Assembly: GCA_025765615.1 (NCBI GenBank)
Contig: JAIVFJ010000011.1
Coordinates: 124,001 to 188,000, forward strand
Origin: Zopfochytrium polystomum
Lineage: Eukaryota; Chytridiomycota; Chytridiomycetes; Chytridiales; Chytridiaceae
DNA: 64,000 bases
Reading direction: 5' to 3'
Position numbers and translations under genes: made by a program. Below, piece by piece: positions 10,909 to 39,712 of the stretch. Every line of letters starts with the position of its first letter. The stretch's first letter is position 1. The notes under the pieces were generated by a model. The model had not been told where the DNA came from and did no database searches. It worked only from the letters and a program-made list of their open reading frames with translations.

Positions 10909-13072
10909 TCAGAACGCGACCTCGATGGAGCGGTTCGACGGCAGCCGCGACTTTTTCATGAACATGGCGCAGACAATAACCATCGCGGAAAACGGGATGG
11001 TCATGTAAAACACCAGCTGAATGGTCTTTACGTAGCCGTGCACGACGGGCCCCCACTCGTCCTCGGGGAGGGTCTTCCTGATGAGCTCTGCGGCCTTGTA
11101 CAGGGACTCGACGGTGACGCCGGGGACCAAAAAGTGGAGAGTCGTGTTGGAGGCCTGCAAGCTTTCGGTGACGTAACTGGGCAGCTTTGCGTTGAAGGCG
11201 ACGGACAAGGCGGCGAGGCCGAGGACGCCGCCGAGGGTCTGGAAAAAGTTGATGATTGCGGTCATTTGGGAGAGGGCGGCCTCTTCGACGGAGAACTGGC
11301 CGACAAGCGTGATGGTCTGGATCAGCAGGCCGGCGCCGACGCCCGCGACGAGGAGGAAGATGATTTGCTCCCACATGGCGCTGGATTCGTCGAGGAGGGT
11401 GCAGAGGAAGCTGGAGAGGAGCAGTAGGACGCCGCCCGTGGGGACCAGCGGCCACGCTTGGCCCGTCGCGCTGCAAAAGATGCCCGAGGTGACTGCGCAG
11501 ATGATGAGGCCGAGGATTAGGGGCAGCGTACGGATGCCGGCGTTTGTGGCGGAGGCTGCGCGTGGGCGGACGGGGAAGGCGATGATTAGGATGTTTTTCT
11601 TGGTTTGAGAACGAATTTATCGAAAACTAAAACGAAATGTAACACTCACCGTCCTTGACAACCTGGAACCACTGCGGCAAGTAAAACACCAGGCCAAAGA
11701 ACGTGCACCCGAAAAAGAACATTGTGGCCAGGGTGAACGCGACGCGGTAGTCGGACACGAGCTTTGGCGGGATGATGGGGTTCGTGGCGACCTTTGCCTC
11801 GATGTAGACGAAGGCGATCGCGAGGAGGCCGCCGACGATGAACATGGCGATGACGGTGGCGGAGGACCAGGCGTACTGGGTGCCGCCGCCCTCAAGCGGG
11901 ATCAGGATGCAGATGACGGCGGCGACGAGCACAAAGGTGCCGAGCCAGTCGATGCGGCCGAGGGCGGCCATGCGGTTGTCAACCTCGGCGGTCACGTTGA
12001 CGTTGAGGAAGAAGGCGACGGCGAGGACGGCGATAGCGCCGACGGGGAGGTTGATGTAAAAGACCCATCGCCACGAGATTTGGTCGACGAACACGCCGCC
12101 GAGGAGCGGGCCTTGTGGGGGGGTGGGTTGAGGGAAGGTTAGCTCAAGCGGGTGATACAACGTGCATACGGTATGTATGTACGTACCGGCGACGGATGCA
12201 ATGCCAAAGGCGGCGCCGATGAGGCCGGACCACTTTGCGCGGTCCTTGCTGGGCACGACGTCGGCGATGATGACTTGCACGAGCGAGATGATGCCGCCAC
12301 CGCCCAGGCCAGCGACGGCGCGCGCGATGATGAGCATCTGATTTGCATTGGCAGAAGACAAAGGAGAAAAAAAAAAAGGAATTAAAGTTTGAGTTTGAAA
12401 CCCCCAAAAATGCAATAGACGCACCCAAAAAGGGCAAAGAAAGGAAAGAAGAAAAGAAAACAAGAGAGAAAAAAAAAAAAAATCTGATTGCATGAATGAT
12501 ACAATCAAGCGAGCTTTTCCTTACCATCATGCTGTTGGCGGCGCCGCACAATGCGCTGCCGATCTCAAAGACAATGATGGCAAACAAGAAGGTCGGCTTG
12601 CGGCCAATGATGTCGGCGACTTGGCCGTACGACGGGATGAAGGCGGTGGCCGTCAGGAAGTACGCCGTCGCGACCCACGCCACTTGGTCCTGCGCGTTGA
12701 ACTCGGTCGAGATGGCCTGCAGAGCGACCGACACGATCGTCTGGCGTACGGTGCGAGCGAGCGAAGCGGTTTTGTGAGTGGATTTGCATGGATAATTCGT
12801 CGCAAATAAACACTAATAGTTACCTGGTCGAGGGCCGCCAAGAACACGGCAATGTCGAGGCCGAGGAACAGGAGCGCAAACTGCAGGTTGCTCATTGTGG
12901 GAACCGCCTGGTTGCCCTTTGGCGCGCCCGCCGGCTTGGTGCTGTCGTCGGCATCGGCGGCTGCGGCTGCGGACGCGCCGCCTGCGTACTCGATGTCAAC
13001 TTGGTTCGCGGCGTCTGCGTCGTTTGCGGTAGTGACGCTCAGGCGCGATGGAGGATGGCTCTTGGAAGCCAT
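10909..13072 (-). CDS. MFS drug/H+ antiporter, DHA2 (14-helix) type, five exons
   Basis: Minus-strand exons 13072-12824, 12740-12525, 12337-12187, 12111-11650 and 11555-10909 join in frame (phases 0, 0, 1, 1) into 574 aa. All introns are GT-AG (84-187 nt). Hydrophobic helices follow a hydrophilic ~65-residue N-terminus. Family signatures are present: AALDQTIVSVALQAI at the start of helix 1, GQVADIIGRKP (motif A), RAVAGLGGGGI (motif B) and GPLLGGVF (motif C of antiporters), then WRWVFYINLPVGA. A late extracytoplasmic loop and short cytosolic tail fit fungal DHA2 exporters of toxins or drugs at the plasma membrane. Substrate unknown; no biosynthetic cluster is adjacent. The exon 5 acceptor was chosen because it gives the expected SATNAGIRTLPLILG; an alternative upstream acceptor breaks the frame. 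Confidence 0.85.
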
Positions 13073-13590: not shown

Positions 13591-13964
13591 GGAATGTTTG
13601 TACTTTTTTTTCTTCTTTTTTTTCTTCTTTTTTTTCTTTCTTCTTTTTTTTTCCCTTTTCTATTTTTTTTTGTTCCGATTTTTCTCCCTTTCCTCACTTC
13701 ATTGCGATGGACCCCCTTACGCAAGCACACAGCAAGAAAGAGAAGCGAAAGGCCCATCCGGACATCCGGACACGGCCGGGCGGATAAGCGAAAGAACCAT
13801 CTCTCTCTCTGTCTCTGCCTCTGTCTCCTGCCTCTGTCTCCCGCCTCTCACTCTCGCTGTCTCTCTCTCTCACACACACACACTCTCTCTCTGTCTCTCT
13901 CTCTCTCACACACACTCTCTCTCTGCCTCTCTCTGTCTCTCTCTCTCTCCGTCTCCCAGTCTCT
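13591..13964. repeat. Low-complexity T/TTC and CT/CA tracts
   Basis: Poly-T/TTC from about 13600 to 13690, then mixed (CT)n with short (CA)n at 13801-13964. Long frames across this stretch are repeat artefacts. Confidence 0.9.
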
Positions 13965-14037
13965 TTCTTCTTGCCAAAAAAGAAGTGCGACGACTTTACT
14001 TCACGAAAGCCGTAATACAGAGGGAAAACAAAACACC

Positions 14038-17000
14038 CTTTTGCCGTCGTCCACGGCGACGACGGCGTTTTACCCGTTTTCCCGGCGGCCGCTCCCGCCT
14101 CTCCCTGGCCGTCGTTGCGGCGGCGGCGGTGCCTTTGCGCCGGGTTTCGCCCGACAGGCGTTTTCGCCGTCGCCGGCGTGGGGTATCGTGGGCTGCGCGC
14201 TGGGTGCGGCAGTACCAGCTTTCGATCCCGCGCTCGCCTTGGCCAGCCCGGCTGCCGCTTTCGGTCCTGATTTCGACCAGGCGGCGCCAACGCCCGCCCC
14301 GCCGCTTTACCCGCTTTCGAGGTCGCAGGCGCCGTGGCCTTGTCCTGTTCAGCTGTTGATGCCGCGTTCTTCCCAGCCACGGCGATCTCACTCACACCCG
14401 TACCGGCTTTCACTCCGGCAGGTGCGCTTGGACTTCCTTCGGGCCAGTCGCCTTTGCGCTCTTGCCGGTGCCGCTACTAGTTGCCGTTTTCGCCTGTGCG
14501 GACTTGGCTGTCGAAGTCTTTTCCATTCTTCGGTGCGTTCCCCTCCTTGCCGTTGGCAGCTGTCTTTGGCGTTTTCGCTCCGCCGGCCTTGGCAGCAGCA
14601 GGTGACTTGGCCGCTCGCGACGTGGCAGCAGCCTTAGCGTTGGCAGCGGTCTCAGTGTTTTTCGCTCCACCCGCTTTGCAGAGTCCGTTCTGCCGCCTGC
14701 TCTGCTCGTCTTTGCAGCCGACTTTTGACGCCGCCGGCTCTTCTTTCGCGCCTGCAGGGTGGCGGTCTTGGCTGTCGATGTCTTTCCGTTCGCTGCGGCT
14801 GGTCCCTTCGGTGCCTTTCCCGTCCTTGCCGTTGGCAGCTGTCTTCCGCGTTTTCGCTCCGCCCGCTTTGGTAGCGTCAGCTTTAGCGCTTGCTTTGCTC
14901 GTCTTTCCAGCCCACTGCGCGCCTGCCCCTTTTGCGCCCTTTGACGCCGCCGGCGGTTCTTTCGCGCCTGCAGGAGATTTGGCTGGGCTCCCCTTTCCAA
15001 TGCTCTTTGCAGCCGCTCCCTTTGGATCTTTGGCGGTGGTCTTCGCGTTCTTGCCGGTCACCCCTGCTTTCGGCACTGTTTGCACCTTTGCTCTCCTCTC
15101 GCTCTTGGCCGTCGTGCTTTCGCCTTTCCTCCCGCTCAAGGCGGTCTTGGGTCCCCCTTCTGCCCGGCCAAAGCTTTGGTATTGGTTGCGGAACCTTTCG
15201 CCGCCGCTCCTCTCGTGGCGGCGGCTTTGGCGCCTTTTGCGCCAGCTCCCTTTGCAGAAGCTGCCGTCGGGGCAGATCTCGCCGTTGTCGCGCCCTTGCC
15301 GCCCTTTGCCAGACCGGCGGCAGCTTTCCCTCCGCTCGTGCCGCTTGCCGCCGGCCTCGTTTGCGCCCTTTGCGGATTTGGCTTCGGCTTTGGCGCCGTT
15401 TGCTCCGATTTCCCTTGGAAGGCAACCTGCAGGCCTGGCGTCGGTACAGTTCGCTTCCGTCCCTTCGCGCCAAGGAGCAGCTGGCCGAAGTGCTGGCGCC
15501 ACCTTTTTCCGCGGCCTTATTCGCCTGCGCCTGTTTTATGACTATTGGCGCGAAAGAAGTTTACAGTTGGGATTTGGAGTCGGGGTTGGGGGTAAGGGAG
15601 TTGTAAGAAAAATTTCAGACTATCAATTGAACTTTCGTCTGCGCTGCTTAAGGGGCCATCCTGGAAGTCCGAGGGAAGATCCTGAGGCCGAGCCCTCCTT
15701 CGGCTTATTGAGTGAACAATGCGGAATTCTTTCGCTGGCGGTCCAATAAATCAGTTGATAGCAGCGTGCGTTCCTTCAATGACCGAATCTTTTTCCTGCG
15801 CCCTTTCGGGTGAAAATCCTGATTAAGTCCTGCTTTACCCGCAGCAGCCCCGCTGAAGGTCGCAAAACCGTTCTGGAGCGACACTGGTTTGTTTGAAGCT
15901 TGGAACTGGGCGTTATTCGACTTCAAATTAAAGTGGTGATGAGTCTCCCTTCATCAGGCCCGAGCGACTTTGTTCCACCTTTTCTTTGCTGGAGGTTCAT
16001 CTGCTCAAGGTTGTTTGGAACACGCAAACGCTCCCAACGGATCAAATTGCAGCCTTACGTCCGTTGCTGTCGTTAGGCATCAAATTTGTGTTTCCTTGAT
16101 TGCGCCGGCAACCACAGGTTTGGATTTGGAGCCGCACAAGAATTAATTATCAAACCCACGAGGTCCGTTTTTGCCCAAGCTCATCATATGCTTTGCACCC
16201 TCTGCAGCGCCTCCGACGGTAGTCACTGTCGCAGTAGTTGCATCGCCGGCTAGTTCCCATTCAGGAAAGGATAAGATTTTAGTGGTGCGAGATAATTCAC
16301 AAAACACTCTCTTACCTATAACGCCGAGTCCACCGTGTTCCACAAGCTTTTGAACCACATTACCTGCCTTGAAAGGTACGGCTGATGGGGTAGGAGCAAG
16401 AAATTTAAGTAAAGGAGGCCGGGGGTAAATAATATCAAGACCAAAAGCAGCAAAGTTCTTGAATTCATTTAAAGCAGCGAAGTTCCAAAAACTCACAGTT
16501 TCTTTCATGCCATGCCCGGTCACCACGTTCGAGATAGTCTTTGCAGCGGATCGGAAAGCGCCAGCAACGACCGCCGAGGCGCCCTTCTGCAGCGCCACCA
16601 GTTCGTGGCGGCAGTACAAGGTGGCAGCTGCGCCCTCTGGAAGGCAACTGCCGCGAAAGTAATGCGCGTAATTAAATGCCCCAAATTTTTCAGCTATCGC
16701 CAATTTCTGGCCATTTCATTAGCGATTTTAACGGTTTCTTCGTTAATCGATGCACAATAGTGGGGAGAACTGATGTATCTTGGAAATAGGGGGTTCGTGT
16801 CAGTAGGGTCAGCTGTTTTATTGTGTCGAGTGAATTTGCTTGTGTTTGATGTCCCGCACTGTAAGTATTAATTTTTTTTTTTGATGATCAGTGTGAGCAG
16901 CGGGCTTTCGCAGTCGCTGAAGAAAATTGATTGATACTTACAGTTTCCGAGTGCCTTTGCGTCTGCATCCATGGCGCCTGCCAGAGCACTTTTGGCCATC

Positions 17001-17478
17001 TCTGTTCCAGCATTCTATGGTGTTAGTCAAATTAGGGCGAACAGCATATTTGCGAAGACGGAGCTGTGGTCAACAACAAAAAAAAAAAAAAAAACCAAAA
17101 AAAAACTACTTACGTTTCCTGCTCTCGTTCTTCGCGTAGCTCTCCATAGCACTCTCGCCTCAATAGCACCGGCAACACCAAGCTTGGCCACTGTTCCGGC
17201 TTAAGTACGAAGGAGTGACGCAGAGGTAAGTAGTTGGTGAAGAGGGCGGAAGCGCATAACGAACCGACGGGTCCTGCAACATCTGAGACAGCCTTTTCTG
17301 CAGGAGCGGGAGCGCCCTTGTCGATAAGAAGATCGGTTCCTGCTTTCCCGATGGCCGCTGTTCCCTCTTCCCATCTTGTTTCGGATTTTAGTCGGTTATC
17401 TGTGAACGGTTCTTCTAATGGACATTGCCTCTCACCACAGCTGTGGCATGTTGGACGGTGTCTTTGATGGACTCCTGC
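14038..17478 (-). pseudogene. Decayed 3'-partial copy of the modular gene at 18.2-28.8 kb
   Basis: Order and sequence follow the 3' half of the downstream paralogue. A D-type exon end (ESIKDTVQHAT) is at ~17475. An E-type exon starts at ATG 17374. F-type at ~17200, G-type at ~16990, then the I, J and K modules (e.g. VVQKLVEHGGLGVIG at ~16350 and GGAAEGAKHMMSLGKNGPRG at ~16180), and an exon-30-like piece at ~15870-15700. The tail starts SLARRDGSELYRRQAC at ~15480. Breaks: the E exon has lost 2 nt (22 bases against 24 in the intact copy's opening), the F exon is frameshifted, the exon-30-like piece runs into stops, and the tail changes frame several times. The tail is about 1.5 kb against 4.6 kb in the intact copy, and the last ~400 nt are missing. 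A tandem segmental duplication followed by decay explains this. Confidence 0.8.
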
Positions 17479-18192: not shown

Positions 18193-21100
18193 TCACTTGC
18201 GACCAGACTTCGCCGCTGGTGCTTGCTTAGCAGGGACTTGCTTAGCGGTCGCTTGCTTCGCGCTAGCCTGCGTAGCAGGGGTTTGCTTCGCGGGAGCAGC
18301 GGCAGGCTTCGCAGGCGTCTTGGCGGCCTTGGTCTGCGCTGCCGTCTGCGCGGGAGCCGCGGCCTTTGCCGCTTGCGGACGCGCCGCGACAGCTTTGCTG
18401 CTGCTGCCACCACCACTTGCGCTCGTCTTGCCCGCGGAACCCGTCCCCGTCGAGCCCTTCGCAGACGCCGCCGGTGCGGCCTTCCCACCACCCGGCTTGG
18501 TCGCACCGCCTCGTCCCGCCGCCCCCGTCCCACCCGGAGATGCTGGCTGCTTGCCCGTCGTGGTCGTCGTCCTCGCGGCGTTTTTGGCGACACCCTTTGC
18601 CGTCGTCGACGGCGACGATTGCGTCTTACCGGTTTTCGCGGCAGCCGCGGCCGCGACGGGAGCGCCCTTGGAGTTCTTGGCCCTGGCGGTCGCCCCAACA
18701 GGTGTTTTCGCCGTGTTTGCGGACGCGGCGGCACGGGGCGTCTTGGCCTGCGCGCTCGGTGCGGCAGCAGCTTTCGATCCCGCGGCGCCCGGCGCTTTGC
18801 CCGTCTTCCCGGCCGCACTCGCAGTTGCCGGCGTCTTGCCCGTTCTAGAGTTCGCCGCCGCCGCGTTCTTCCCAGCACCGGCAACGCCCTTGGAGCTCTT
18901 GGCCCCGGCGGCGGAGGCCGTTGTGGCAGCGGTACCTTTGGTGGCCTTGCCGGCGGCGGCGCCGGTTTTCGTCCCGGTGGGCGCTGCAGTCTTTTTACCG
19001 GACCCGGCCGCCTGGGGCGTTTTGGCCGGCTGCCCGGCGGCTGCTTTTGATCCCGCCGTCGATCCCGCTTTAGATCCCGCGGTCGCTTTGCCCGCTTGCG
19101 ACTTGGCGGCGGGAGCGCCCTTTGAGTTCTTGGCCCCGCCGCCGGCTGCGGCGCCGCCGGTTTTCGCCCCGGCTGGCGCTTTCGCCTTGTTCGCGGTCGC
19201 CACTGTTCCCCGGGGCGTCTTGGCCTGCCCGGCCAGCCCTGATTTCGACCCTGCGGCGCCAGCGCCCGGCGCTTTGCCCGCTTTCGCGGCCGCGGGCGCC
19301 GTCGCCTTGCCCGCTCGAGAATTTGCTGCCGTGTTCTTCCCACCGCTGGCAGCGCCCTTGGAGTTCTTGGCCCCGGCGGCGGTGGTGGTGGTTGCAGCGT
19401 TACCCTTGCCAGCCTTGCCGGCGGCGGCGCCGGTTTTCGCCGCGGCTGGTGTTTTCGCCTTATTTCCCGGCGCCTGTCCGGCTGCCGTTTTTGAACCTGC
19501 TGTAGGTCTTGCGGCGCCGGCGCCCGGCGCTTTGCCCGCTTTCCCGGTCGCAGGGGCCGTCGTTTTGCCTCCTCGAGACTTTGCTGCTGCCGCATCCTTC
19601 CCAGCGCCGGCTGCGCCCTTGGAGTTCTTGGCCCCGCCGGCTGCGGTGGGAGCGGTGCTCTTGGCAGCCTTGCCCGAAGCGGCGCCGGTTTTCGCGCCGG
19701 AAGAGGCTTTCGTCCCGGCAGTCGCTTTCGTCCCGGTAGGAGCTTTCCCCTTGGCCAGCCCGGCTGCCGTTTTCGGTCCAGATTTGGACCCCGCGGCGAC
19801 GGCGCCCGGTGCTTTGCTCGCTTTCGTGGTCGCAGGCGCCACCGTCTTGCCCGCTCGAGCCGTTGCTGCTGCGTTCTTTCCGGCTGCGGCGGGACCCTTG
19901 GCGGCCTTGCTTCCACCGGCTTTCGCTCCGGCAGGTGCAGTCGTGCTCTTGGCGGACGCTTGGCCGCCTTTCGCGCCCGCTTTTGCGCTCTTGCCGTTGC
20001 CGCTACTAGTAGTTGTTTTCGCCGCTACCTTGGGAGACTTTGACTTTGTAGCCGCCGCCACACCGCCCTTTGCGGCGGGACCCTGGGTCCCTTTCGCGGT
20101 GGTCGCTGCTTTCGGCATCTTTCCGCCCTTGGCGCTGGTAGCTGCTGTCTTTGGCGCTTTCGCTCCAGCAGTTTTGGAACCAGTAGGCGACTTGGCCGCT
20201 CCAGTCTTGGCGGTGGCGGCCGCGCCGCCCTTCGTGGCAGGACTCTTGGCATTTTTCGTGGAAGTTGCTGCCTTCGGCGCCGTTCCGCCCTTGGCGGTAG
20301 CAGCTGCCTTGGGCGCTTTCGTTCCGGCGGCTTTGGTACCGGTAGGCGACTTAGCCGCTCCTGCCTTTGCGGCGGTTGGGCTCCGAGGGACCGCTTTGCC
20401 GGCTTTCTGAGTGACGGTCTTGGCTGACGTAGCCTTCGGGCCTTTTGTGGCGGCCGCGCCGCCCTTCGCGACAGGACTCTTCGCGTTTTTCGCAGGGGTA
20501 GCTGCCTTTTGCGCCGTTCCGCCCTTGGCGGTGGCAGCTGCCTTGGGCCCTTTCGTTCCAGCGGCTTTGGAACCGGTAGGCGACGTCGCCGCTCCCGTCT
20601 TGGCGGCGGTAGGACTCCGAGGTACTGCTTTGCCGGCTTTTTGCGTGACAGACTTAGGCGTCGGCGTCTTAGCGCCCTTTGCGGCGGCCACGCCTCCTTT
20701 CGCGCCGGTGGCTTTTGCACTTTTCGCAACGGCTGCTCCTTTAGGCTCCTTTCCGCCTTTGGCGCTGGCAGGTGTCTTTGAGGTCTTTCCACCGGCTTTG
20801 GTGGCAGCAGGTGACTTGGAGGCAGCCGAATTCCCTTTACCTGCCTTTTGGGCGGCGCTCTTGGGCGACGAGGTCTTTGCCCCTTTCGCGACAGTCGCAC
20901 CACTTTTCGCCGCTGCAGGAGCTTTTGCCCCTTTCGCAGCGCCTGCTGCCTTCGGCGCGTTTCCGTTTTTGCCGGCTGTCTTTGGCGCTTTTTGGGTGGC
21001 GGTCTTGGCTGTCGATGTCTTTCCGTTCGCTGCGGCTGATCCTTTCGGTGCCTTCCCGCCCTTGCCGTTGGCAGCTGTCTTCGGCGTTTTCGCTCCGCCC

Positions 21101-24100
21101 GCTTTGGTAGCGTCTGCTTTAGCGCCTGCTTTGCTCGTCTTTCCAGCCGACTGCGCGCCTGCCCCTTTTGCGCCCTTTGACGCCACCGACGGTTCTTTCG
21201 CGCCTTTAGGAGATTTGACTGGGCTGCCCTTTCCAAGATTCTTTGCAGCCACTCCCTTTGCATCTTTGGCTGTGGTCTTCGCGTTCTTGCCGGTCACCCC
21301 TCCTTTCGGCACTGTTTGCGCCTTTGCTCCCTTTGCGCTCTTGGCCGTCGTACTTGGGCCTTTCGTCCCGCTCACGACATTCTTAGGGCCACCTTTCTGC
21401 CCGGCCAAAGCTTTGGTGTTGGTTGCCGAACCTTTCGCCGCCGCTCCTCTCGTGGCGGCGACTTTGGCGCCTTTTGCGCCAGCTCCCTTTGCAGAAGCTG
21501 CCGTCGGGGCAGATCTCGCCGTCGTCGCGCCCTTGCCGCCCTTTGCCAGACCAGTGGCAGCTTTCCCTCCGTTCGAGCCGCTTGCCGCTTTCGCGGCGGC
21601 TCCCCCGCCAGTTTTCTTTGCAGACGCTGTGGCAGCAGGTGACTTGGAGGCAGCCGAATTCCCTTTACCTGCCTTTTGAGTGGTGCGCTTGGGCGACGAG
21701 GTCGTTGCCCCTTTCGCGGCAGTCGCGCCACTTTTCGCTGCTGCAGGAGCTTTTGCCCCTTTCGCGGCGCCTGCTGTTTTCGGCGCGTTTCCGTTTTTGG
21801 CGTTGCCGGCTGTCTTTGGCGCTTTTTGGGTGGCAGTCTTGGCTGTCGATGTCTTTCCGTTCGCTGCGGCTGATCCTTTCGGTGCCTTCCCGTCCTTGCC
21901 GTTGGCAGCTGTCTTCGGCGTTTTCGCTCCGCCTGCTTTGGTAACGTCAGCTTTAGCGCCTGCTTTGCTCGTCTTTCCAGCCGACTGCGCGCCTGCCCCT
22001 TTTGCGCCCTTTGACGCCACCGACGGTTCTTTCGCGCCTTTAGGAGACTTGACTGCGCTGCCCTTTCCAAGATTCTTTGCAGCCACTCCCTTTGCATCTT
22101 TGGCTGTGGCCTTCGCGTTCTTGCCGGTCACCCCTCCTTTCGGCACTGTTTGCGCCTTTGCTCCCTTTGCGCTCTTGGCCGCCGTACTTGGGCCTTTCGT
22201 CCCGCTCACGACATTCTTAGGGCCACCTTTCTGCCCGGCCAAAGCTTTGGTGTTGGTTGCCGAACCTTTCGCCGCAGCTCCTCTCGCGGTGGCGGCTTTG
22301 GCACCTTTGGCGTCAGCTCCAGCTCCTTTCGCCGCCGTGGCAGATCTCGCCGTCGTCGCGCCCTTGCCGCCCTTTGCCAGACCAGCGGCAGCTTTCCCTC
22401 CGTTCGCTCCGGTTGCAGCTTTCGTGGAGGCGCCGGTTTTCTTGGCGGACGCTGCCGTCGGAGCCGCCGACCTCGTCGTCGCGGCCTTGGCGCCCTTTGT
22501 GGTGTTGGCGTCGGCTTTCGCTCCAATAGGGGCTTTCGCGGCTTCAGCTCTTTTCCCAGACGCCGTCGGGACGGGTTTCGCAGTCGCGCCCTTGGCTCCT
22601 TTTGCGGAATTGGCGTCGGCTTTCGCGCCCTTTGCTCCGATTGTGGCTTTGCCCGCCGCGTCGGCTTTCCCCTTGGAAGGCAACTTGCACGCCTGGCGTC
22701 GGTACAGTCCGCTTCCGTCCCTTCGCGCCAAGGAGCAGCTGGCCGAAGTGCTGGCGCCGCCTTTTTCCGCGGCCTTCTTCGCCTGGGCCTGTTTGATGAC
22801 TGTGGGAGTGGGAGAAGTGAAAGGTTTGGGTTTGGGGAGAGAGAAGGGGACGGGGAAGTTGTAAGACAGAGATCCAGACTATCAATTGAGCTTTCGGCTG
22901 CACTCCTATGAACGCACCATCCTGGAAGTACGAGGGAAGATCCTGAGGCCGAGCCTCCTTCGGCTTGTCGGAGTGAACAATGCGGAATTCTTTCGCTGGC
23001 GGTCCGATAACTTTGTTGATGGCAGAGTGCGTTCCAGCAGTTACCGAGTTTTCGATAGCCTGAGCTGCACCGGGCGCAAATCCTTTTTTTAGTGCCACAT
23101 CTCCCGCAGAAGCCCCAGCGTAGGTCGCCACACCGTTCTGGATCGACGCTGTTTTTTTTTGTTTAGATTGGGATTCGGCTTCAAATCAAAGTGGTGGACT
23201 TACTTCGATATGACTCCCCCTTCATAAGACCTGAAGCGACTTTGTTCCACCCTTTCTTTACGGGAGGCTCGCCTGCGTATGTTAAAGGTTATTGTGAACA
23301 CGCAAGCGCTCGCAGCGGAGGGAACAGCAGCCTTACGTCCGTTGCTGTCGTTGGGGATCAATTTTGTGTTTCCCTTGATTGCGCCGGCAACTGCTCCCTT
23401 GACGACCTCTGTGGAAGATGAAGCACAGGTCAGGATTCGAAACTGCATGAGTAGAGATGTTGATACCCACGCGGTCCGTTTCCGCCCAAGCTCATCATAT
23501 GCTTTGCACCTTCCGCAGCGCCTCCGACGGTAGCCATTGTTGCAGTCGTTGCATCGCCGGCTGGTTCCCATTTTAGGATAGGGTAAAGATTTATTTGCTG
23601 CGAGATAATCCACAAAAACACTCTCCTACCTATGACGCCGAGTCCACCGTGTCCCACAAGCTTTTGAACCACTTTACCTGTCTTTACAGGTGCAGCTGAG
23701 GGCAAGAACTTTAGATGCTGGTGATAGCAAGACCAAAGCAGCAAATTTTCTTGGACTCACAGTTTCTTTCGCTCTCCGGCACGTTCGTGTACGCCGACTT
23801 CATGTTCCCGGTCACCACGTTTGAGAGATGCTTTGCCGCCGACCCGAAAGCGCCAGCAACGGCCGCCGGAGCGCCTTTCTGCAGCGCCAAGTTGGTAGCG
23901 GCAGAGGACGTGGTTGCAGCAGCACCTTTCTGGAAGGCGGCTGTTTTGGTTTTGCGGGGGTGGAGGGACGGAGTGCTAAGATGTCAGGAGTCGTCGCTTC
24001 TCTCGGCGCAGGTTCACGCACCTTTCACTTTCGCTCCCTTCTTGAGCTCATCTGCCGTCGCCTGAAGACCATCTTTAATCGGACGAACAGTTGGTGCTGA

Positions 24101-27100
24101 TTTTTTTCGTTTTTTTTTGGCAGCCAGTGTTAGAAGCCTGCAGCGGTAGTCACTGGAGAAACCTAATTGATGCTTACAGTTTCCGAGTGCCTTTGCGTCC
24201 GCATCCATGGCGCCTGCCAGTGCACTTTTGGCCATCTCTGTTTCAGAATTAAGGGATTAGTCAAATCGGAACTGGCTACCTTGCAAGATATTTGCAATGA
24301 TGGCTGAGGTCAACAAAAAAAAAAAAATCGACTTACGTTTCCCGCTCTCGTTCTTGGCGTAGCTCTCCATCGCACCCTTTGTCGCACCAATAGCGCCGGC
24401 AACGCCAAGCTTGGCCACTGTTCCGGCTAAAGTACGAAGAAGGGTGACGCAGGAATAAGTAATTGGTGAGAAGTGCCGAAGGGCCAAACGAACCAGCTGG
24501 TCCGGCCACAGCCGAGACAGCCTTCTCCGCGGCCGCCGGAGCACCCTTGTCGATAAGTACGTCGGTCCCTGCCTTCACGATGGCCGCTGTTCCCTCTTTC
24601 CCCATCTAGTTTCGGATTTTGGTCTGTCAATCTTTGAAGTGGCCCTTCTCATGGGCATTGCTCTCTCTCACCGCAGCTGTAGCGTGTTTGACGGTGTCTT
24701 TGACCGATTCCTTCTTCATCGCCGACATTGCCACGGACTCAACGCCGTCTTTTACTGCCTTTCGGAGATCGTCTTTTTTTTTCGGAGTTTGGAAATTTCC
24801 GGGTTAGCAAACAGGCTATCAACATCTTTGGCAGGAACACTGCACCGACCCACCTTTTGCTCCAGCTTGTCCAGCAACTGCGCTCGCAGCGACGCCAGCG
24901 GCGCTCGCAGCTCCTTCTTTCAAAGCGGCTGGCGTGTAGCAGAAAAAATTGGGCGTCAGAATGTCGTTTCGCCGAGTATCGCTTCGTCATTACTTTTGAT
25001 GGAGTTGTTTTTTTGAAGGCTCGCCGAGACCTTTTGGATGGGCTCGACCAATGTCTGTGCCTCTTTCTTAACCTTCTCTTTGGCTTTGGGATTTTAAAGC
25101 GAGACGGAAAACATTTAGGGTTGGGGTTGCTCTTATAAAGAGAGAAGCAAACCTTCTGGACCGGCGACAGCGCCTGCCACAGACCCGGCGACCTTTGGAA
25201 CAACTTCCGTCGCTTTATTGACGGCCGCAATCGCCACTGCCTTCTTCCCTTCCGGGCCCATCTGGGGTGTGTGTTTTGTTAAGTTTTGTTAAGGCATATG
25301 GTGGGTTACTCGCGTGGCTCTCAATCCAAAAGAGCAACCCCCAACACTTACAGCGTCCCCAACGTTCTTGGCGGTCTCCTTGAGCGTGTTGTGGTTGAGG
25401 GCGGAGGTGACTGCGGCTTTGGTACCGTCGTGCACGGCTTTCTGGAGTGTCGCTGTGGTCCGGCGAACAAGGCGGGTTTTAGTTTTGCGCCGAAGCGTTT
25501 CGAGCAAACAACGGGGGAGGCAGAAGAAGAAAAAAACGCGGTCCAACACACCGTCTGCGCCTTTGTGCTTGGCGATGGCGGCGGCAGTTCCACCGGCTAG
25601 CTCGCCCGTGCCTTCTTTCAAGGCGTCTGTCATTTTGAGGGTCATCAATATAGGAGGTTGCGTGGGTGCATGTGAAGGGACTGCCTCCTTACTTATGACG
25701 CCGTGTCCCTGTATAACCTGCTTTGCGGTGGTTTTGATGGCAGGAACGACGACAGGAGCTATTCCCCGATTTCAGTCTGCTGTCAGGAAACTGGGGAAAG
25801 CTGAAAATGTTCCACGGCAAGTACTGACCTACGGCTTTGGCTGTATCGAGAACCGGATGTGAACCCTTTTTCCCTTTGGCGCCATCGAGGGCGCCCTTGA
25901 ACGCGTCGATCGCGGTTTCTGTGCGTGGGGCAGGAGTAGGTTTAAGCCAATGACAACAGAGCCCCCTTTCTTTTGCTTACGCGTTGTCGTTTGGCCCTTT
26001 TTATGGCCAGCAATGGCACCGCTTACACCACCGAGGACGCCGCCAGTGGCGGCTTGCGCAGCACTACCAGCTTCACACGGGTGTTAGATTGGTGCAAGCG
26101 TGGAAAAGATAGGCAAAAAAAGCAGCCCACGAGTGGTGGTCGTGGTACACACCGAGGGGACCTGCCACCGCCGTAACAGCTCCTCCGACGAGGGCTGGTC
26201 CTCCTTTTTGTGCAACGTGGTCGGATCCATCTCTAATGATTGCCCGTGTTCCGTCCTTCCCCATCTAATTTGTGAGAGAAGGTAGCGGGTACCGGGAGGC
26301 GAGGTGGTTGCAATGCGAGCTATAACGCTTGGCAAAGGTGACAAAAAGGCGACCAGCATGCCATACCGCCTGGGCCGCTCGCTTCAAAGTTCGCCGAAGA
26401 CCCTCCTTTCTCTCCATCGACATTTTGACAGCGTCAGCCCCTGCTTGCGCAGCAGCCCTTGTGTCCTCTGTGTTCTTAAAATGTGAGAACGTAGTTGCGG
26501 AAGATTGCCAAAAGGTAGTCACCAGGTAGGTCTTTTTTCCCGGCTGATGGAGGGGCGGAGGAAGGAGTCAAATGGCTGCAAGCAGCAGCAAGTGAGAAAA
26601 AGGAGAATGCACTTTACCGATCCTTTCTCCGGCCGAAACATAGCCGGCTTGGATTCCGGTTTTTACAGCGGCTGCGCGTTGTTCAAGAGTTTGAGAGGGG
26701 GCGGAAACCAGAATGCGCACACTTTACTTTTTACGGAAGCTCCTTCCTTTAGCTCGTGGGCTGTTGTCTTCAAACCGTCGCGAATAGGGTTGTCTAGACG
26801 GATGTTTTTAAGCGATAACGGAGTGAGGACGTAGTGTGGCGTGTCGAAGTGGAACTTACGTTTTTGGACATTTTTCGCGCTAACTTCCAGCGCACCAGCC
26901 AAGCTGTCCTTGCCGATTTCTGGAAATGTGTAACAAGCGGGTGGCGGGGAGGTGATAAAGAGGAGGTAGGAAGGGTGGAAGGGCGGGGAATTGGGTTGAA
27001 AAAGCAGAAAATTGGTGAGTGCTATCATTTTGTCGGCACGAAAGTTTGCGTCATACGTGGAAGAGAGTGATCTTGTTTGATTCCCGAGACGGCGCCTTCG

Positions 27101-28797
27101 ACGCCACCGATCACACCGGCGACCGCATGTGTCGTAGCCTTGCCAGCTGTTTGTAGAGTGGGCGAGGCACGACGGTCAGAACACGACCTCCTCCTTTTTC
27201 TCCCAAGAAGAAACAGGAAAGCAGGCAAAACAGACCTATTGATCCAGCGACCATCCCGACAGCGCCGCCGGCGACTTTGGGGACCCCTTGCTCCAGCACA
27301 ACTCTACCCGCCTCCTTCGCGAGGGTCTTGGCTCCTTCTTTTCCAATCTGGTCGAGGGAGAAACGGTAGGGAAAAAACAATGTGATAAGAGGACATGGAC
27401 CGCGCGAGAAAACTCTTGCCCCTTTTCCTCTGGCTTTGCGACTAACCGCGTCTTTCAGGTTGCCCACGGTTTCAGAAAAGCCTTCCTGCTTAATCGCCGA
27501 CGACGCGAGGGATTCTGCCGAGTTTTTCGCAACCTTTTGCAGCGGAACTTTGGGTGGGAGCAGAACGGGAATCAGTGCGCTACACATAAAAAATAAAAAT
27601 AAAAATAAAAATTGACAGAAATCAAGAAGCAGCAAGAAAACAAAGGGCGCTGCTTGCTCACCGCTCGCTCCGGCGTGCCCTGCCAGTGCTCCGGCCGTGA
27701 CGCCAGCCAGATTCGCAGCGCCTTCTCCCATCGCAGCTGTTGTTGTATTTCAGTTCAGGGGGAAGTGGGGAAGTTGGGGAAGTTGTTGGGTGGAGGAAAG
27801 TGGGTTATATGATTTGCAACACCACACATGTTTTGTTTCGTTCCGCATGGGCATCTTGCAGCCTGTGGCGTACGTACTCTTGATCGAGTTCTGCCTCGCG
27901 AGGCTGTCCGAGACCTTTTCGAGCGGCTCGGCCAGCCCGTTGATGCCGTTCTTGACGGCCTGTTTGCCTTTTTTTTTTTGTTTTCATTTTTTTTTTTTTT
28001 GTGTGTTGCCACGTGTCCGGTCGAGTCGGACCAGTGGTGGGAAGGGTTTCTCACGTCAGCGATCGATCACACATACAAATACACAAACGACGACAGAAAC
28101 AAAAAAGGAGGGGGAAAAAGGGGAAAAACAGGAAACAAAGAAAGGGAAATAAAAAAAGGACGCCCCCCCCCAAAGACCCAAAGACGAACACCAGAGTGTG
28201 GCGCTTTGTGGGGCTCATGACCTGTTGGGGGCCACCCACCCCACTCACACACCAACACGCAAACCCACACAAACCCTGCGCACCTTTCTCGTTCTTGACC
28301 AAATTCGACGCCGTGTCCGCGGCGTCCGACAGGTAGACCCGCCCCAGGTCGACGCCGGCGTGCGCGATCTTCTTCGCGTCCTCGTTCTTGCTGGTGCTGC
28401 TGAACCACCCCTGCGGATCGCGCCGCCGCAAATTATAATTATCGTCCGCACCAATCATGACCGCTGCTTCTCCGGCGGCTTGTGCTTCTGCTTCTGCGCC
28501 GCCGCTGCGGGTTGCTGCTACGATGGGTGCTGGCGCTGGTGCTGCTATCGCCGCCGCTGCTGATGTCCCGTCGGCGGCGGCGGCGGCCGGAGAAAGGATG
28601 ATGACGACGACGGCGACTGGGAGGAGGAGTAGGAGGAAGAGGAGGAGGAGAGGAGCGGCGAGTGCGAGTCCCGGGAGAGGCCCGCCAGCGAGGGTCTGTC
28701 GGCGGCGGTGACGAAGGCTGCGGCCGCGGCCGCGCCAAGCCGCAGTGGAAGCCGGCATCGCTGGCGGTGGTGCTGGTGGTGGGAGGAGTGGTTTCAT
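18193..28797 (-). CDS. Large modular Ala-rich protein, 31 exons, with H1-like Lys/Ala tail
   Basis: Hand-built model: 31 exons, 7,824 nt, divisible by three, 2,607 aa, GT-AG throughout. Exon 1 carries a hydrophobic LALAAPLLLLFLLLLLP-like segment (probable membrane anchor) after ~45 residues. Exons 2-30 encode short Ala-rich, probably amphipathic helical modules that recur with the same exon length and phase; see the exon map. The single last exon (22799-18193) encodes ~1,535 residues dominated by Lys, Ala, Gly, Thr and Pro with KTPKTAANGK-type repeats, like linker-histone tails. I do not recognise the family and assign no function; a surface, vesicle-coating or nucleic-acid-binding role would be guesswork. 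The start could also be an in-frame ATG at 28932, but that lies about 25 bp from the TATA-like box, so 28797 is preferred. The long plus-strand frames here are shadows. Confidence 0.72.
20830..22490 (-). repeat. ~830-bp tandem duplication inside the Lys/Ala tail exon
   Basis: Two head-to-tail blocks of about 276-278 codons. For example TTGGGCGACGAGGTC occurs at 20861 and 21689, and GAACCTTTCGCCGC at 21428 and 22262 (offsets 828 and 834). Shorter ~200-bp repeats occur at 20.1-20.75 kb. Confidence 0.8.
22799..28797 (-). other. Exon/module map of the modular gene
   Basis: Exons (5' to 3'): 1 28797-28284; 2 27967-27878 B; 3 27736-27662 C; 4 27547-27447 D; 5 27347-27236 E; 6 27146-27057 F; 7 26919-26860 G; 8 26793-26728 H; 9 26671-26618; 10 26467-26367 D; 11 26264-26153 E; 12 26070-25981 F; 13 25918-25829 G/H fused; 14 25758-25693 J; 15 25626-25552 C; 16 25452-25352 D; 17 25261-25153 E; 18 25083-24994 B; 19 24928-24854 C; 20 24772-24672 D; 21 24605-24494 E; 22 24426-24337 F; 23 24237-24178 G; 24 24096-24022 H; 25 23940-23761 I; 26 23695-23630 J; 27 23560-23471 K; 28 23408-23337; 29 23272-23204; 30 23148-22918; 31 from 22799. 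Lengths repeat: B 90, C 75, D 101, E 112 (once 109), F 90, G 60, J 66. D exons are phase 1-0, E exons 0-1, the other internal ones 1-1. Confidence 0.7.
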
Positions 28798-28987: not shown

Positions 28988-29059
<72 letters not shown>

Positions 29060-29097
29060 GCGAGTGAGAGAGAGAGAGAGAGTGTGTGTGTGTGTGT
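28988..29097 (+). repeat. (GA)n/(GT)n microsatellite
   Basis: Nearly pure GA for ~95 bp followed by GT units. Confidence 0.95.
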
Positions 29098-34650: not shown

Positions 34651-34722
34651 TGTTTCCAATACAATCATCACTCCTCTCAGTTCCTTGTCTGCCTTGTCCT
34701 GTCCTGCCCTGTTCCTGACATT

Positions 34723-34733
34723 ATAATTCACTT
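34723..34733 (+). other. Self-priming primer binding site, gypsy copy 1
   Basis: ATAATTCACTT starts 2 nt after the LTR and pairs perfectly over 11 nt with the start of R. There is no TGG-type tRNA 3'-end complement after the LTR. This matches the Tf1/sushi self-priming mode. Same in copy 2 at 39675-39685. Confidence 0.65.
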
Positions 34734-34760
34734 CACCCTCTCCCACTACTCTCTGCCATC

Positions 34761-35684
34761 ATGTCTGACCCAAACAACACCTTCCCTGATGCAACTGCCT
34801 TCCAAGCCTTGATGGACCAATTACAAGCCCTCTCAAGACAGACACACCAACTTCAAGAACAAGTCCTTCACCAGCAGCACCAGCTTCAACAACAACTTCA
34901 CCAACAAGAACATCAAGCTCTTCCCCTGCCTCAAGCCAACCAAGCAAGAGAGCCCAAGGTTCCCAGCCCTGACAAGTTCACTGGGCTGGCCAAAGACCTT
35001 AGGAACTTCATGGCCACTGTGGAGAATGTCATCCTTCTCCAACCTTCAAGATTTCCCAGTGAGCAAGTCAAGGTTCTTTTCACAAGCACCCTCCTGTCTG
35101 GTCAAGCTCAATCATGGTACAGATCTCTCCCAAGCACACCCACCACCCTGCAAGAGCTCTGGGAGGGGCTGGAAGCTACCTTTGGTGACCCCTACGCATC
35201 TTGGACAGCAAGATCCAAGCTCAAGCATATCAAGCAAGGAAAGCAATCTTGTGTGGCCTACACCAACCAATTCAAGCAACTAGCCAGAGACTCTGGATAC
35301 AATGATGCAGCTCTGATGGAGCTGTACCATGATGGTCTCCATGAGTCTATCCAAGACATGCTCTCCCAGTCTCTGCACATCCCTGAGACCTTGGAAGAGT
35401 ACATTCTCCTTGCCATCAAGATTGACAACAGACTCTACTCCAAGAGGCTGAAGCAAAGACAAGTAGGAACTACATCAAGACCTACCCCAGTCCCTCAAGC
35501 TCTTACAGTTCCTGAACCCATGCAAGTGGATGCAGTTGAGACACTTCCTAAGGGTCCTCTGAGCCAAGAGGAGAAAACAAGGAGGGCCCAGCAGGGACTG
35601 TGTTTTTACTGTGGCTCCAAGGAGCATGCTGTCAAGGACTGCCCAAGGAAGAAGCACCCAAACTCCCAGGTCCAGGCTCACTGA
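34761..35684 (+). CDS. gag: Gag (copy 1)
   Basis: 307 aa, the first ATG after the primer site. Gln/His-rich helical N-terminus, then a capsid-like core (PDKFTGLAKDLRNFMATVEN, later LLSGQAQSWYRSL) typical of the retrotransposon Gag family. One CCHC zinc knuckle follows (C281, C284, H289, C294). Gag builds the virus-like particle and packages the RNA. The last ~130 nt overlap the open pol frame and contain the frameshift signal. The copy at 39713-40636 has the same protein sequence. Confidence 0.95.
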   Translation: MSDPNNTFPDATAFQALMDQLQALSRQTHQLQEQVLHQQHQLQQQLHQQEHQALPLPQANQAREPKVPSPDKFTGLAKDLRNFMATVENVILLQPSRFPSEQVKVLFTSTLLSGQAQSWYRSLPSTPTTLQELWEGLEATFGDPYASWTARSKLKHIKQGKQSCVAYTNQFKQLARDSGYNDAALMELYHDGLHESIQDMLSQSLHIPETLEEYILLAIKIDNRLYSKRLKQRQVGTTSRPTPVPQALTVPEPMQVDAVETLPKGPLSQEEKTRRAQQGLCFYCGSKEHAVKDCPRKKHPNSQVQAH

Positions 35685-38600
35685 GGGGCAATTCCCTGGA
35701 CCCTCCTCCAAGCTGCCCCTGTTTCATCACCACCACCAGCACCACAAACACCTCAGATTCCAAGCCCCACCAACTCACCATGGATGTCAAGATTCAACTC
35801 TCACCCAAGTCAACCATCACAACCAAGGCCCTTATAGACTCTGGATCATCCTGCAACATCATTGATGCCACCCTTGCCAAGTCTTGTGCCATTCCTACGA
35901 TCAAGAAATCCACACCCCTCAAGGTCCACTTTGCCAATCATGCTCTGTTCAAGGAAATCAGCCATGAAACCAAGCTAAACCTCCACATCCAAGACTTTCC
36001 ACCATCCATGGTCAATCTGGAAGTATTGGATCTTGGCTCACCCACATTCTCTGTCATCCTGGGATTACCATGGCTGCAAGCCCAGAACCCTGCCATTGAT
36101 TGGGTCACTGGTCAAGTCCAACCTCCACCAATCGGAACAGTCACCCAAAACTCAAGTCAAGCCCCCAAGTCTCATGCTCTCAAGCCCTTGATTCAAGATT
36201 CACAGCCAGCCAAGACTCAAGTTCCACAGTTCACAGTTCACAGTCAAGATTCAAGTAGAGCTCATAGAGCTCACAGTCATGGCCATGACTCTTGTTCACA
36301 GAACCCACAGTCAAAGATTCAAGTACCACAGTTCACAGTCCACATTCAAGATTCAAGTTCCACAGCTCACAGTCTTTGCCAAGAACAGAACTCTCAGTCA
36401 AAGATTCAAGAATCACAGTTCCCAGTCAAGAATTCAAGCCCCACTGCTGAGGAGCACGACAACCTGGACCCATCAGACCTTTTGCTGGCATCCAAGCTAC
36501 CAAAAGAATATCTCCCTTATGCTGATGTGTTTTCCAAGACCAAGGCAGACCTGCTACCAGCTCAGAGGCCTTATGACTGTGAAATCCCACTCAAGGATGA
36601 AACTTGCAGCCCACCTTTCAAGCCACTGTACCACCTCTCTCCACCAGAAGCCAAGGCCCTCCAAGAATACATTGAAGAAATGCTGAACAAGGGATTCATC
36701 CAACCTTCCAAGTCACCAGCTGGAGCTCCCATCTTTTTTGTCAAGAAGAAGGATGGGGGACTGAGACCCTGTGTGGACTACAGAGATCTCAATGAGATGA
36801 CAGTCAAGAACCGCTATCCACTGCCTCTCATCTCTGAATTACTGGACAAACTGAGCCATGCAAGGATATTTTCCAAGATTGACCTCAGAGGTGCCTACAA
36901 TTTGGTCAGAATTAAGCCCCAGGATCAATGGAAGACTGCCTTCAGATGCAAATACGGTCACTTTGAGTACTTGGTTATGCCCTTTGGACTTACCAATGCT
37001 CCAGCTATTTTCCAAGGCATGATGAATGACATCTTCAGGGATATTCTGGACCTTTTTGTCATTGTCTACCTGGATGATATCCTGGTATTTTCATCTGACA
37101 CTGCAAGCCATATGGGACATGTCAAGACTGTCTTGGAGAGACTCAGACAGCATCACCTCTATGCAAAGCTGGAGAAGTGTGAATTCCACAAGACCTCCAT
37201 TGAGTTTTTGGGGTTCATTGTGTCTGACAAAGGGATCTCCATGGCACCAGACAAGATCCAAACTATTCTTGAATGGAAGGCTCCAAATTCCATCAAGGAT
37301 GTTCAAAGCTTCCTTGGATTTTGCAACTTCTACAGAACCTTCATTGCCAACTATTCTGCCATAGCCAAGCCTCTCACTGATCTCACCAAGAAGACCACCA
37401 AGTTTGAATGGACCCCAGCAGCAGAGCAAGCCTGGCTAGCTCTTAAGACAGCAACCACAAGTGCACCACTCCTTAAGCATGTGGATCCCTTGCTTCCCTT
37501 CACCTTGGAAACTGATGCCTCAGACTATGCCCTTGGCGCTGTTCTGTCCCAGCCAAGCTCTCAGGACCCCTCTGCTCCTCTGCATCCAGTGGCATATTAC
37601 TCCAGGAAGCTGAACAGTGCTGAGTGTAACTACACAGTCCATGACAAGGAGTTGCTTGCAATTGTGGAAGCATTCAAATTCTGGAGACACTACTTGGCTG
37701 GTTCTAAAGGCATCTCTGTCTATTCTGATCACAAGAACCTCACCTTCTTCAGGGCAAGGAGGTTGCTCAAGCAGAGGCATGCCAGGTGGGCTGAACTGCT
37801 CTCTGAGTATGACTTTAAGCTGTGCTATTCTCCTGGCCACCTTAACACTGTGGCTGATGCCCTGTCAAGAAGAACAGACCTTGCACCTGAAGGGGGAGAT
37901 GGTTTCACCCCACCATCCAAGACACACCTTTCATTGCTTCCTGACAGTGTGTGGGCCCATGCTATTTCCAAGGACCCCAAGCCTCACAAGATTCAAATCA
38001 GCCAAGAAGAGGAAAAACTTGAGATACTCAAGACAAGGCATGATGCAGCAACAGCTGGACACCCAGGAGAGCACAAGACATATGAGCTTGTTTCCAGAGA
38101 CTTCTACTGGCCAGGCATGAGGAAGTACATCAAGAACTATGTCAGCAGCTGTGAAACCTGTCAAAGAAACAAATCCAGCAGACACAAGCCCTATGGACTT
38201 CTGGAGCCCCTCCCAATTGCCATCAGCCCTTGGTCATCAATATCCATGGACTTCATTGTGAAACTGCCCCCATCCCATGGATTTGACTCTATCCTTGTTG
38301 TCATCTGCAGAAGGACAAAGTTGGCCCATTTCATCCCCTGCACTGAGAATATAGATGCACAAGGAACAGCAGACCTGTTTTTGCAGCACATATTCAGGCT
38401 CCATGGGCTGCCTCAGTCAATCGTCAGTGACAGAGGACCACAGTTCAGATCTCAATTTTGGAAAGCACTCACAGCAGCCCTTGGAATCAAGTCTCAACTG
38501 TCAACTGCTTATCACCCTCAGACTGATGGACAAACAGAAAGAACAAACCAGACTCTGGAGCAGTATTTGAGGTGCTATGTCAGCTATCAACAGGATGATT

Positions 38601-39319: not shown

Positions 39320-39672
39320 TGTTATGAATCACCCTCTGGAAACCTCTGGAACCTTCTAGAACATTCCTTCATGGAACCTTCTGGAACCTTCTGGAACCTT
39401 CTAGAACATTCCTTCATGGAACCTTGTGGAACCTTCTGGAACCTTCTTTGCTTTCCTGACTTGTCTTGTTGTCATTGGTATCATTGGTATCATTGTATTA
39501 CTAATTGCTCTTTCTGGAACTTTCTTGGAGTCTTGACAAGGAACACTCTCAAAAGGTATAAAAGGGGGATGGGGGACCTGTCCCATCCCTCAAGTGAATT
39601 ATTGTTTCCAATACAATCATCACTCCTCTCAGTTCCTTGTCTGCCTTGTCCTGTCCTGCCCTGTTCCTGACA
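39320..39672 (+). repeat. LTR 2 (shared between the two gypsy copies)
   Basis: 353 bp. Differs from LTR 1 at several bases (for example CTTGGAGTCTTG against CTTTGAGACTTG, and GGAACACTC against GGAAGACTC). Confidence 0.95.
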
Positions 39673-39712
39673 TCATAATTCACTTCACCCTCTCCCACTA
39701 CTCTCTGCCATC

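What the first reader, a model, noticed from the sequence alone, without database searches (positions are those of the whole stretch)
18193..28797. Undescribed-looking modular gene built from repeated mini-exons of fixed length and phase
I resolve 31 exons that sum to an exact multiple of three. Internal exons fall into types that recur with identical lengths: B 90/90, C 75/75/75, D 101 four times, E 112/112/109/112, F 90/90/90, G 60/60, J 66/66. D exons are always phase 1-0 and E exons 0-1; the other internal exons are 1-1, so any block can be duplicated without breaking the frame. The order B-C-D-E-F-G-H recurs in whole or in part four times. Seen in sequence: lengths, phases, splice signals, similar peptides. 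Inference: growth by exon-block duplication. I recognise no family.
Basis: partly seen in the sequence, partly recalled or inferred. Interest (0 to 1): 0.88.

Follow-up and report, generated by a model that had tools for sequence, protein, structure and literature searches.

The report
Fungal orphan gene of duplicated mini-exons
A gene in a probably flagellated fungus was built by copying a block of about six tiny exons several times over, a frame-safe building style usually described from animals, and it encodes a protein for which no relatives were found and whose job is unknown.

Summary
On the minus strand, 28797 to 18193, 31 exons join into a 2,607-aa frame; 30 of 30 introns are GT-AG, 26 in phase 1, 4 in phase 0. 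Exons of equal length resemble each other more than shuffled peptides do. I read the middle as six diverged copies of a ~176-aa unit, exons [B/J]-C-D-E-F-G; units 1-4 are clear, 5-6 condensed. It is a natural control: over 10 exons the copies differ at 9.2, 9.4 and 23.1% of codon positions 1, 2, 3, and at 27.9% of sites in 8 introns, supporting the frame without RNA. The host is a fungus with a flagellar gene, probably zoosporic. No relatives were found, but those negatives are soft: Ala/Gly-rich words swamp the searches, and the protein search of the host's own genome did not complete. Growth by exon-block duplication is well supported. Function is inference: an N-terminal hydrophobic segment, amphipathic and Gly/Ala helices and a +268 polycationic tail suggest a secreted or anchored structural protein.

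The parts
28284..28797 (-). Exon 1, head, 171 codons: proline/arginine-rich start, hydrophobic stretch (residues ~43-69), Ala-rich linker, start of the helical part; ends in phase 1
   Evidence: hydropathy (Kyte-Doolittle 3.52 at residues 50-68). Start codon not verified; the Leu run is coded by a CTC-type simple repeat (28620-28655)
26860..27967 (-). Unit 1, exons 2-7: B 27967-27878, C 27736-27662, D 27547-27447, E 27347-27236, F 27146-27057, G 26919-26860
25829..26793 (-). Unit 2, exons 8-13: J 26793-26728, C' 26671-26618 (placed by position), D 26467-26367, E 26264-26153, F 26070-25981, G' 25918-25829 (placed mainly by position)
25153..25758 (-). Unit 3, exons 14-17: J/H 25758-25693, C 25626-25552, D 25452-25352, E 25261-25153 (109 nt); F and G absent
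24178..25083 (-). Unit 4, exons 18-23: B 25083-24994, C 24928-24854, D 24772-24672, E 24605-24494, F 24426-24337, G 24237-24178
   Evidence: exons 20 (part) and 21-23 also compared with the decayed copy
23337..24096 (-). Unit 5 (condensed), exons 24-28: J 24096-24022, E-like 23940-23761 (180 nt), H 23695-23630 (placed mainly by position), F 23560-23471, G 23408-23337
22918..23272 (-). Unit 6 (condensed), exons 29-30: J 23272-23204, E-like plus linker 23148-22918 (231 nt)
18193..22799 (-). Exon 31: tail of ~1,525 aa of Ala/Lys/Gly/Thr/Ser/Pro repeats, 284 basic and 16 acidic residues, to the stop codon
   Evidence: two pairs of internal copies differ by 3- and 6-nt indels only
14033..17476 (-). 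Decayed, 5'-truncated tandem copy of the gene's 3' half (from inside exon 20 into the tail); frame-breaking indels in exons 21, 22, 25, 28, 29 and 30

Best explanation
This is a real spliced gene of a (probably zoosporic) fungus. It grew when a block of about six small exons, coding a ~176-aa helix-prone unit (amphipathic B/J, Gly/Ala-rich C, D, E with a G-x-P turn, Gly/Ala-rich F, short G), was duplicated repeatedly within the gene through introns. Because unit borders lie in phase-1 introns and the only phase-0 intron (D/E) sits inside the unit, every block copy stays in frame. Some copies later lost exons (unit 3) or became condensed (units 5, 6). Shown: the gene model as an open, splice-consistent frame, unit homology, frame under selection in the compared exons, and a tandem copy that decayed. 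Inferred: the order of duplications, the losses and the role of introns. Function (inference, about 0.35): the protein enters the secretory pathway by its N-terminal hydrophobic segment, the helical units pack or self-associate through Gly/Ala faces, and the strongly cationic tail sticks to an acidic polymer, giving a wall or surface structural protein.
Confidence: 0.62

Rival explanations
1. Chromatin-type protein: the Lys/Ala/Pro tail acts like a histone H1 or AlgP-type tail and binds DNA, the hydrophobic start being a wrong start codon.
For: Tail composition A 31, K 17, G 16, T 11.5, S 8, P 6 per cent with 284 basic and 16 acidic residues. Similarity to H1-like tails is recalled, not tested.
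Against: No H1 or other DNA-binding domain listed in Pfam for residues 1-1088 (tail not scanned); the strong hydrophobic segment in exon 1.
Confidence: 0.15
2. Membrane-remodelling or pore-like protein: each E-F pair forms a glycine-zipper hairpin that inserts into a bilayer.
For: Sub-threshold glycine-zipper matches over the E-F stretch: Gly-zipper_Omp on unit 1 (E 0.02, 15.2 bits v cut-off 25) and Rick_17kDa_Anti on unit 2 (E 0.42, 11.0 v 24.2); best of two profile hits is a SlyB-type glycine-zipper lipoprotein at E 0.62; small-xxx-small runs in E-F.
Against: All below cut-off, and unit 4, which has both E and F, gives no match; E-F hydropathy at most 1.48; units 3 and 6 lack F.
Confidence: 0.2
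3. Desiccation or stress protein of LEA type, largely disordered.
For: Ala/Gly/Lys/Thr-rich composition without clear domains.
Against: No LEA family among the two families listed (E up to 10, though HMMER's filters drop most weak matches); 12 columns invariant over units 1-4 and selection on positions 1 and 2 suggest a defined sequence rather than composition alone.
Confidence: 0.12
4. The pattern is a by-product of low-complexity Ala/Gly/Lys sequence and free choice of splice sites.
For: The coding region is Ala/Gly/Lys-rich throughout and long frames are open on both strands in the tail.
Against: Composition-preserving shuffles, codon-position pattern and intron contrast against the decayed copy, splice consensus.
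Confidence: 0.03

Closest known systems
Animal modular proteins built from class 1-1 exon modules (Patthy; PMC8001218: passages, section 8)
   Same: Repeated 3n blocks bounded by phase-1 introns, downstream of a possible secretory start; frame-safe duplication.
   Different: Fungal host; the unit is apparently helical and spread over about six exons rather than one mainly-beta domain; copies shown only inside one gene; no known domain recognised in it.
Tandem exon-duplicated repeat genes in general, e.g. collagens, apolipoproteins (recalled)
   Same: Internal growth by repeated exon blocks of constant length.
   Different: No sequence relation was looked for by name; none surfaced in Pfam or PDB.
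Micro-exon genes of schistosomes (search listing only)
   Same: Many short exons, most of them multiples of three, behind a secretory start (recalled).
   Different: Those exons are shorter and vary more (recalled); animal host; no sequence relation was tested directly.
Glycine-zipper proteins (Gly-zipper_Omp, Rick_17kDa_Anti, SlyB)
   Same: Gly/Ala-rich hairpin-like stretch at the E-F junction.
   Different: Only sub-threshold matches, in 2 of 4 units; repeated unit with other helices.

Membership tests
Class 1-1 exon-shuffled modular proteins | Modules bounded by introns of the same phase (1-1) | tested here: met
   The introns at the unit borders are phase 1; 26 of 30 introns phase 1, 4 phase 0, the four at D/E
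Class 1-1 exon-shuffled modular proteins | Module homologous between copies | tested here: met
Class 1-1 exon-shuffled modular proteins | Module also occurs in other, unrelated genes (shuffling, not just duplication) | tested here: inconclusive
   Only the window and 274 kb of the same contig could be scanned: the unit profile finds no copy beyond the gene and its decayed duplicate. Own-genome protein search unanswered in 15 of 15 tries
Class 1-1 exon-shuffled modular proteins | Extracellular or membrane protein (mostly) | tested here: inconclusive
   Hydrophobic N-terminal segment by hydropathy only
Class 1-1 exon-shuffled modular proteins | Metazoan host | tested here: not met
   Host carries Chitin_synth_1, 21 exon-level matches, and a TRI12-type MFS gene in the window
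Glycine-zipper families (PF13488, PF05433) | Score above Pfam cut-off | tested here: not met
   PF13488 15.2 bits v 25 on unit 1; PF05433 11.0 v 24.2 on unit 2; no match on units 3 and 4
MFMR_assoc (PF16596, disordered region) | Score above Pfam cut-off | tested here: not met
   Unit 3 only: E 0.0039, 18.1 bits v 31.1, the lowest E-value seen for any unit
Oleosin (PF01277) | Score above Pfam cut-off | tested here: not met
   E 1.1, 9.5 bits v 25, on the hydrophobic head only
Histone H1-like | Winged-helix globular domain | tested here: not met
   No such Pfam match listed in residues 1-1088; the tail was not scanned

The most novel reading that the evidence does not exclude
A fungus independently evolved an animal-style, frame-safe class 1-1 exon-module system with an all-helical module, and the modules were also spread to other genes in the same genome: exon shuffling outside animals.
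Probability: 0.12. Interest if true: 0.78.

Novelty: new variant of a known kind. Interest (0 to 1): 0.48.

Why it matters
A 2021 review (PMC8001218, section 8) states that proteins built by exon shuffling are restricted to animals, with practically no evidence in other eukaryotes, that the modules are of class 1-1, and asks why. A fungal gene grown from phase-1-bounded blocks shows that at least the within-gene step of that route also happens outside animals, with an apparently helical unit rather than the mainly-beta modules typical there. The decayed sister copy makes the gene model and the selection on it testable without RNA. It also adds an apparently orphan repeat protein to a probably zoosporic fungus.

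Tried and rejected
Low-complexity artefact: rejected by shuffles and by the codon-position pattern. The labels were mine, set after reading the peptides; one search repeats the test with length and phase only.

Ending exon 27 at 93 nt: gave a GG donor; corrected to 90 nt with donor GTGGGT.

Tandem copy as a second working gene: rejected, because its exons carry frame-breaking indels, exon 24 is not recognisable, and it lacks the 5' half. Whether it was dead from birth is open. Over the 10 exons the ratio of positions 1+2 to position 3 is about 0.40, which does not exclude death at birth. Leaving out exon 30 it is about 0.23 (24/461 v 51/228, my arithmetic), which would mean it worked for a while, but dropping exon 30 is a choice made after seeing the data.

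A relative in the flank: an uncorrected tblastn of the body (composition correction and low-complexity filter off) gave matches in locus L006 down to E 7e-8, 25% identity. Rejected: the unit profile does not find it at E 1 and 10 of 200 shuffles of that stretch score as high, z 1.8.

Intron similarity between same-type positions as a trace of recombination: none.

Structure: one fold of exon 25 with 5 other exon translations, pLDDT 57, a single helix, uninformative; no fold search was run on it, and the second fold job was not used.

Homology: whole protein database with 902 aa (none at E 10), profile of units 1-4 (two hits, best E 0.62), full length with region 110-1095 (none at E 10). Limits: each scored only the ~8,000 candidates sharing most words, which Ala/Gly/Lys words can fill, and by the stated length rule proteins of about 311-495 aa were never candidates. 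In PDB by sequence nothing at E 1 and three profile hits at E 0.63 or worse, to designed proteins by the names given for two of them. NCBIfam none; viral contigs, 370 aa of the body: 10 pattern hits, 0 relatives; prokaryote contigs, profile: 78 pattern hits, 0 relatives; phages, 465 aa of the body: none. Rfam (gathering threshold) and tRNA scans of the window: none.

Full report
WHAT IS THERE. I rebuilt the gene from the raw minus strand. From an ATG at 28797 to a stop ending at 18193 there are 31 exons and 30 introns of 55-316 nt, CDS 7,824 nt, 2,607 aa. All 30 introns are GT-AG; donor +5 is G in 27 of 30 and +3 a purine in 25 of 30; 26 are phase 1, 4 phase 0 and none phase 2. D exons (4 of 4) are 1-0, E exons (4 of 4) 0-1, and the remaining 21 of 29 internal exons 1-1.

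At 17476-14033, just downstream, lies a tandem copy of the gene's 3' half, from inside exon 20 into the tail. It is decayed: frame-breaking indels in exons 21, 22, 25, 28, 29 and 30, and exon 24 not recognisable. Between gene and copy, 10 exons (20-31 without 24 and 25; 20 and 31 in part) differ at 28/306, 29/307 and 70/303 of codon positions 1, 2 and 3, and 8 introns (20-22 and 26-30) at 156/559. Selection therefore acted on the predicted protein in the predicted frame over most of the compared exons. The support is for the set, not for each exon: exon 30 differs alike at its three positions (16/76, 17/76, 19/75), and the dropped exons 24 and 25 have only 0.47 and 0.67 identity. In the tail, two pairs of internal copies differ by 3- and 6-nt indels only, while the decayed copy's tail also has 1-nt indels; third-position excess is clear in one internal pair (11/4/23), weak in the other (19/10/22) and absent against the decayed copy (12/21/17, 21/27/27).

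THE PROTEIN. Head: a hydrophobic run at residues ~43-69 (Kyte-Doolittle 3.52) preceded by arginines, which looks like a signal peptide or anchor (no predictor was run); its leucines come from a simple repeat. Body: 911 aa, A 20%, G 13%, K 11%; 4 of 6 B/J exons (2, 8, 18, 24) are amphipathic at the 98th-100th percentile of shuffles; C, F and the second half of E are Gly/Ala-rich. Tail: 1,525 aa, 284 basic against 16 acidic residues. The attempted fold of exon 25 with five other exons is poor (pLDDT 57).

RELATIVES. None at a cut-off in Pfam (residues 1-1088; units 1-4) or NCBIfam; none convincing in PDB sequences, the protein database (12, 41, 53), viral and prokaryote contigs (30, 56) or phages. 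Sub-threshold matches: MFMR_assoc on unit 3 (E 0.0039, 18.1 bits v 31.1), Gly-zipper_Omp on unit 1 (E 0.02) and Rick_17kDa_Anti on unit 2 (E 0.42), the last two both over E-F; and a SlyB protein at E 0.62. The glycine-zipper hints are a lead only. The negatives are soft: Ala/Gly/Lys words fill the candidate lists, and the eukaryotic content of that database is not known to me. In the window plus 274 kb of the same contig a unit profile finds only this gene and its decayed copy; an uncorrected tblastn match in L006 did not stand up to shuffling. The search of the whole own genome did not complete (15 tries), so whether the unit occurs in other genes is open. A 601-base piece of the tail has 4 DNA matches listed in the 80-Mb genome, all within this locus, and that count is a lower bound.

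THE HOST. The genome has 21 exon-level matches to Chitin_synth_1 and a Radial_spoke_3 gene (E 3.4e-49), neither family found in the 14 control genomes of those calls, and the window has a TRI12-type MFS gene: a fungus that keeps a flagellar protein, hence probably zoosporic. The species is not known to me.

HOW IT WORKS, AND NOVELTY. Well supported: growth by repeated in-gene duplication of a phase-1-bounded exon block. Fixed lengths and phases follow from that descent and are not separate proof. Inferred: secretion, helical packing, polyanion binding by the tail. Patthy (PMC8001218; passages, section 8) writes that exon-shuffled proteins, whose modules are of class 1-1, are restricted to animals. 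This gene shows the within-gene half of that process in a fungus; it does not contradict the claim about shuffling between genes. My literature searches listed no such fungal case that I noticed in titles and abstract starts, but they cover open-licence papers only and a handful of word combinations.

VERDICT. Observation confirmed, interpretation supported, family unknown, function unproven. New variant of a known kind; interest 0.48, higher if the unit is found in other genes.

Noticed in passing
window 34719-39319 and 39671-44271: Two back-to-back copies of an LTR-type retroelement with gag-like and pol-like frames, the pol ending in a chromodomain-like stretch (my reading). The long frames differ at 2 bases (first frame, 1 residue) and 0 bases (second frame) between copies.
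   Followed up: partly
window 44799-45593 and 48485-49279: The same 264-aa frame twice, identical in DNA, 3.7 kb apart; no Pfam match for the first copy. A recent duplication next to the retroelement pair.
   Followed up: partly
window 28989-29097 and 13876-13968: Long GA-type simple repeat just upstream of the gene and a complementary repeat just beyond the end of its decayed copy; they flank the duplicated region in inverted orientation.
   Followed up: no
window 11627-12520: MFS transporter fragment with TRI12 match (E 5e-12) beyond the decayed copy.
   Followed up: partly
introns 3, 4, 7, 14, 15, 23, 26 of the gene: Seven of 30 introns are multiples of three and have no in-frame stop, so their retention would keep the frame open.
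   Followed up: no
window 14477-15535: The decayed copy's tail still holds a 352-aa open frame, and a 620-nt piece of its tail is 91% identical to the gene while its exon/intron part is 74-78%, which may point to later gene conversion or constraint.
   Followed up: no
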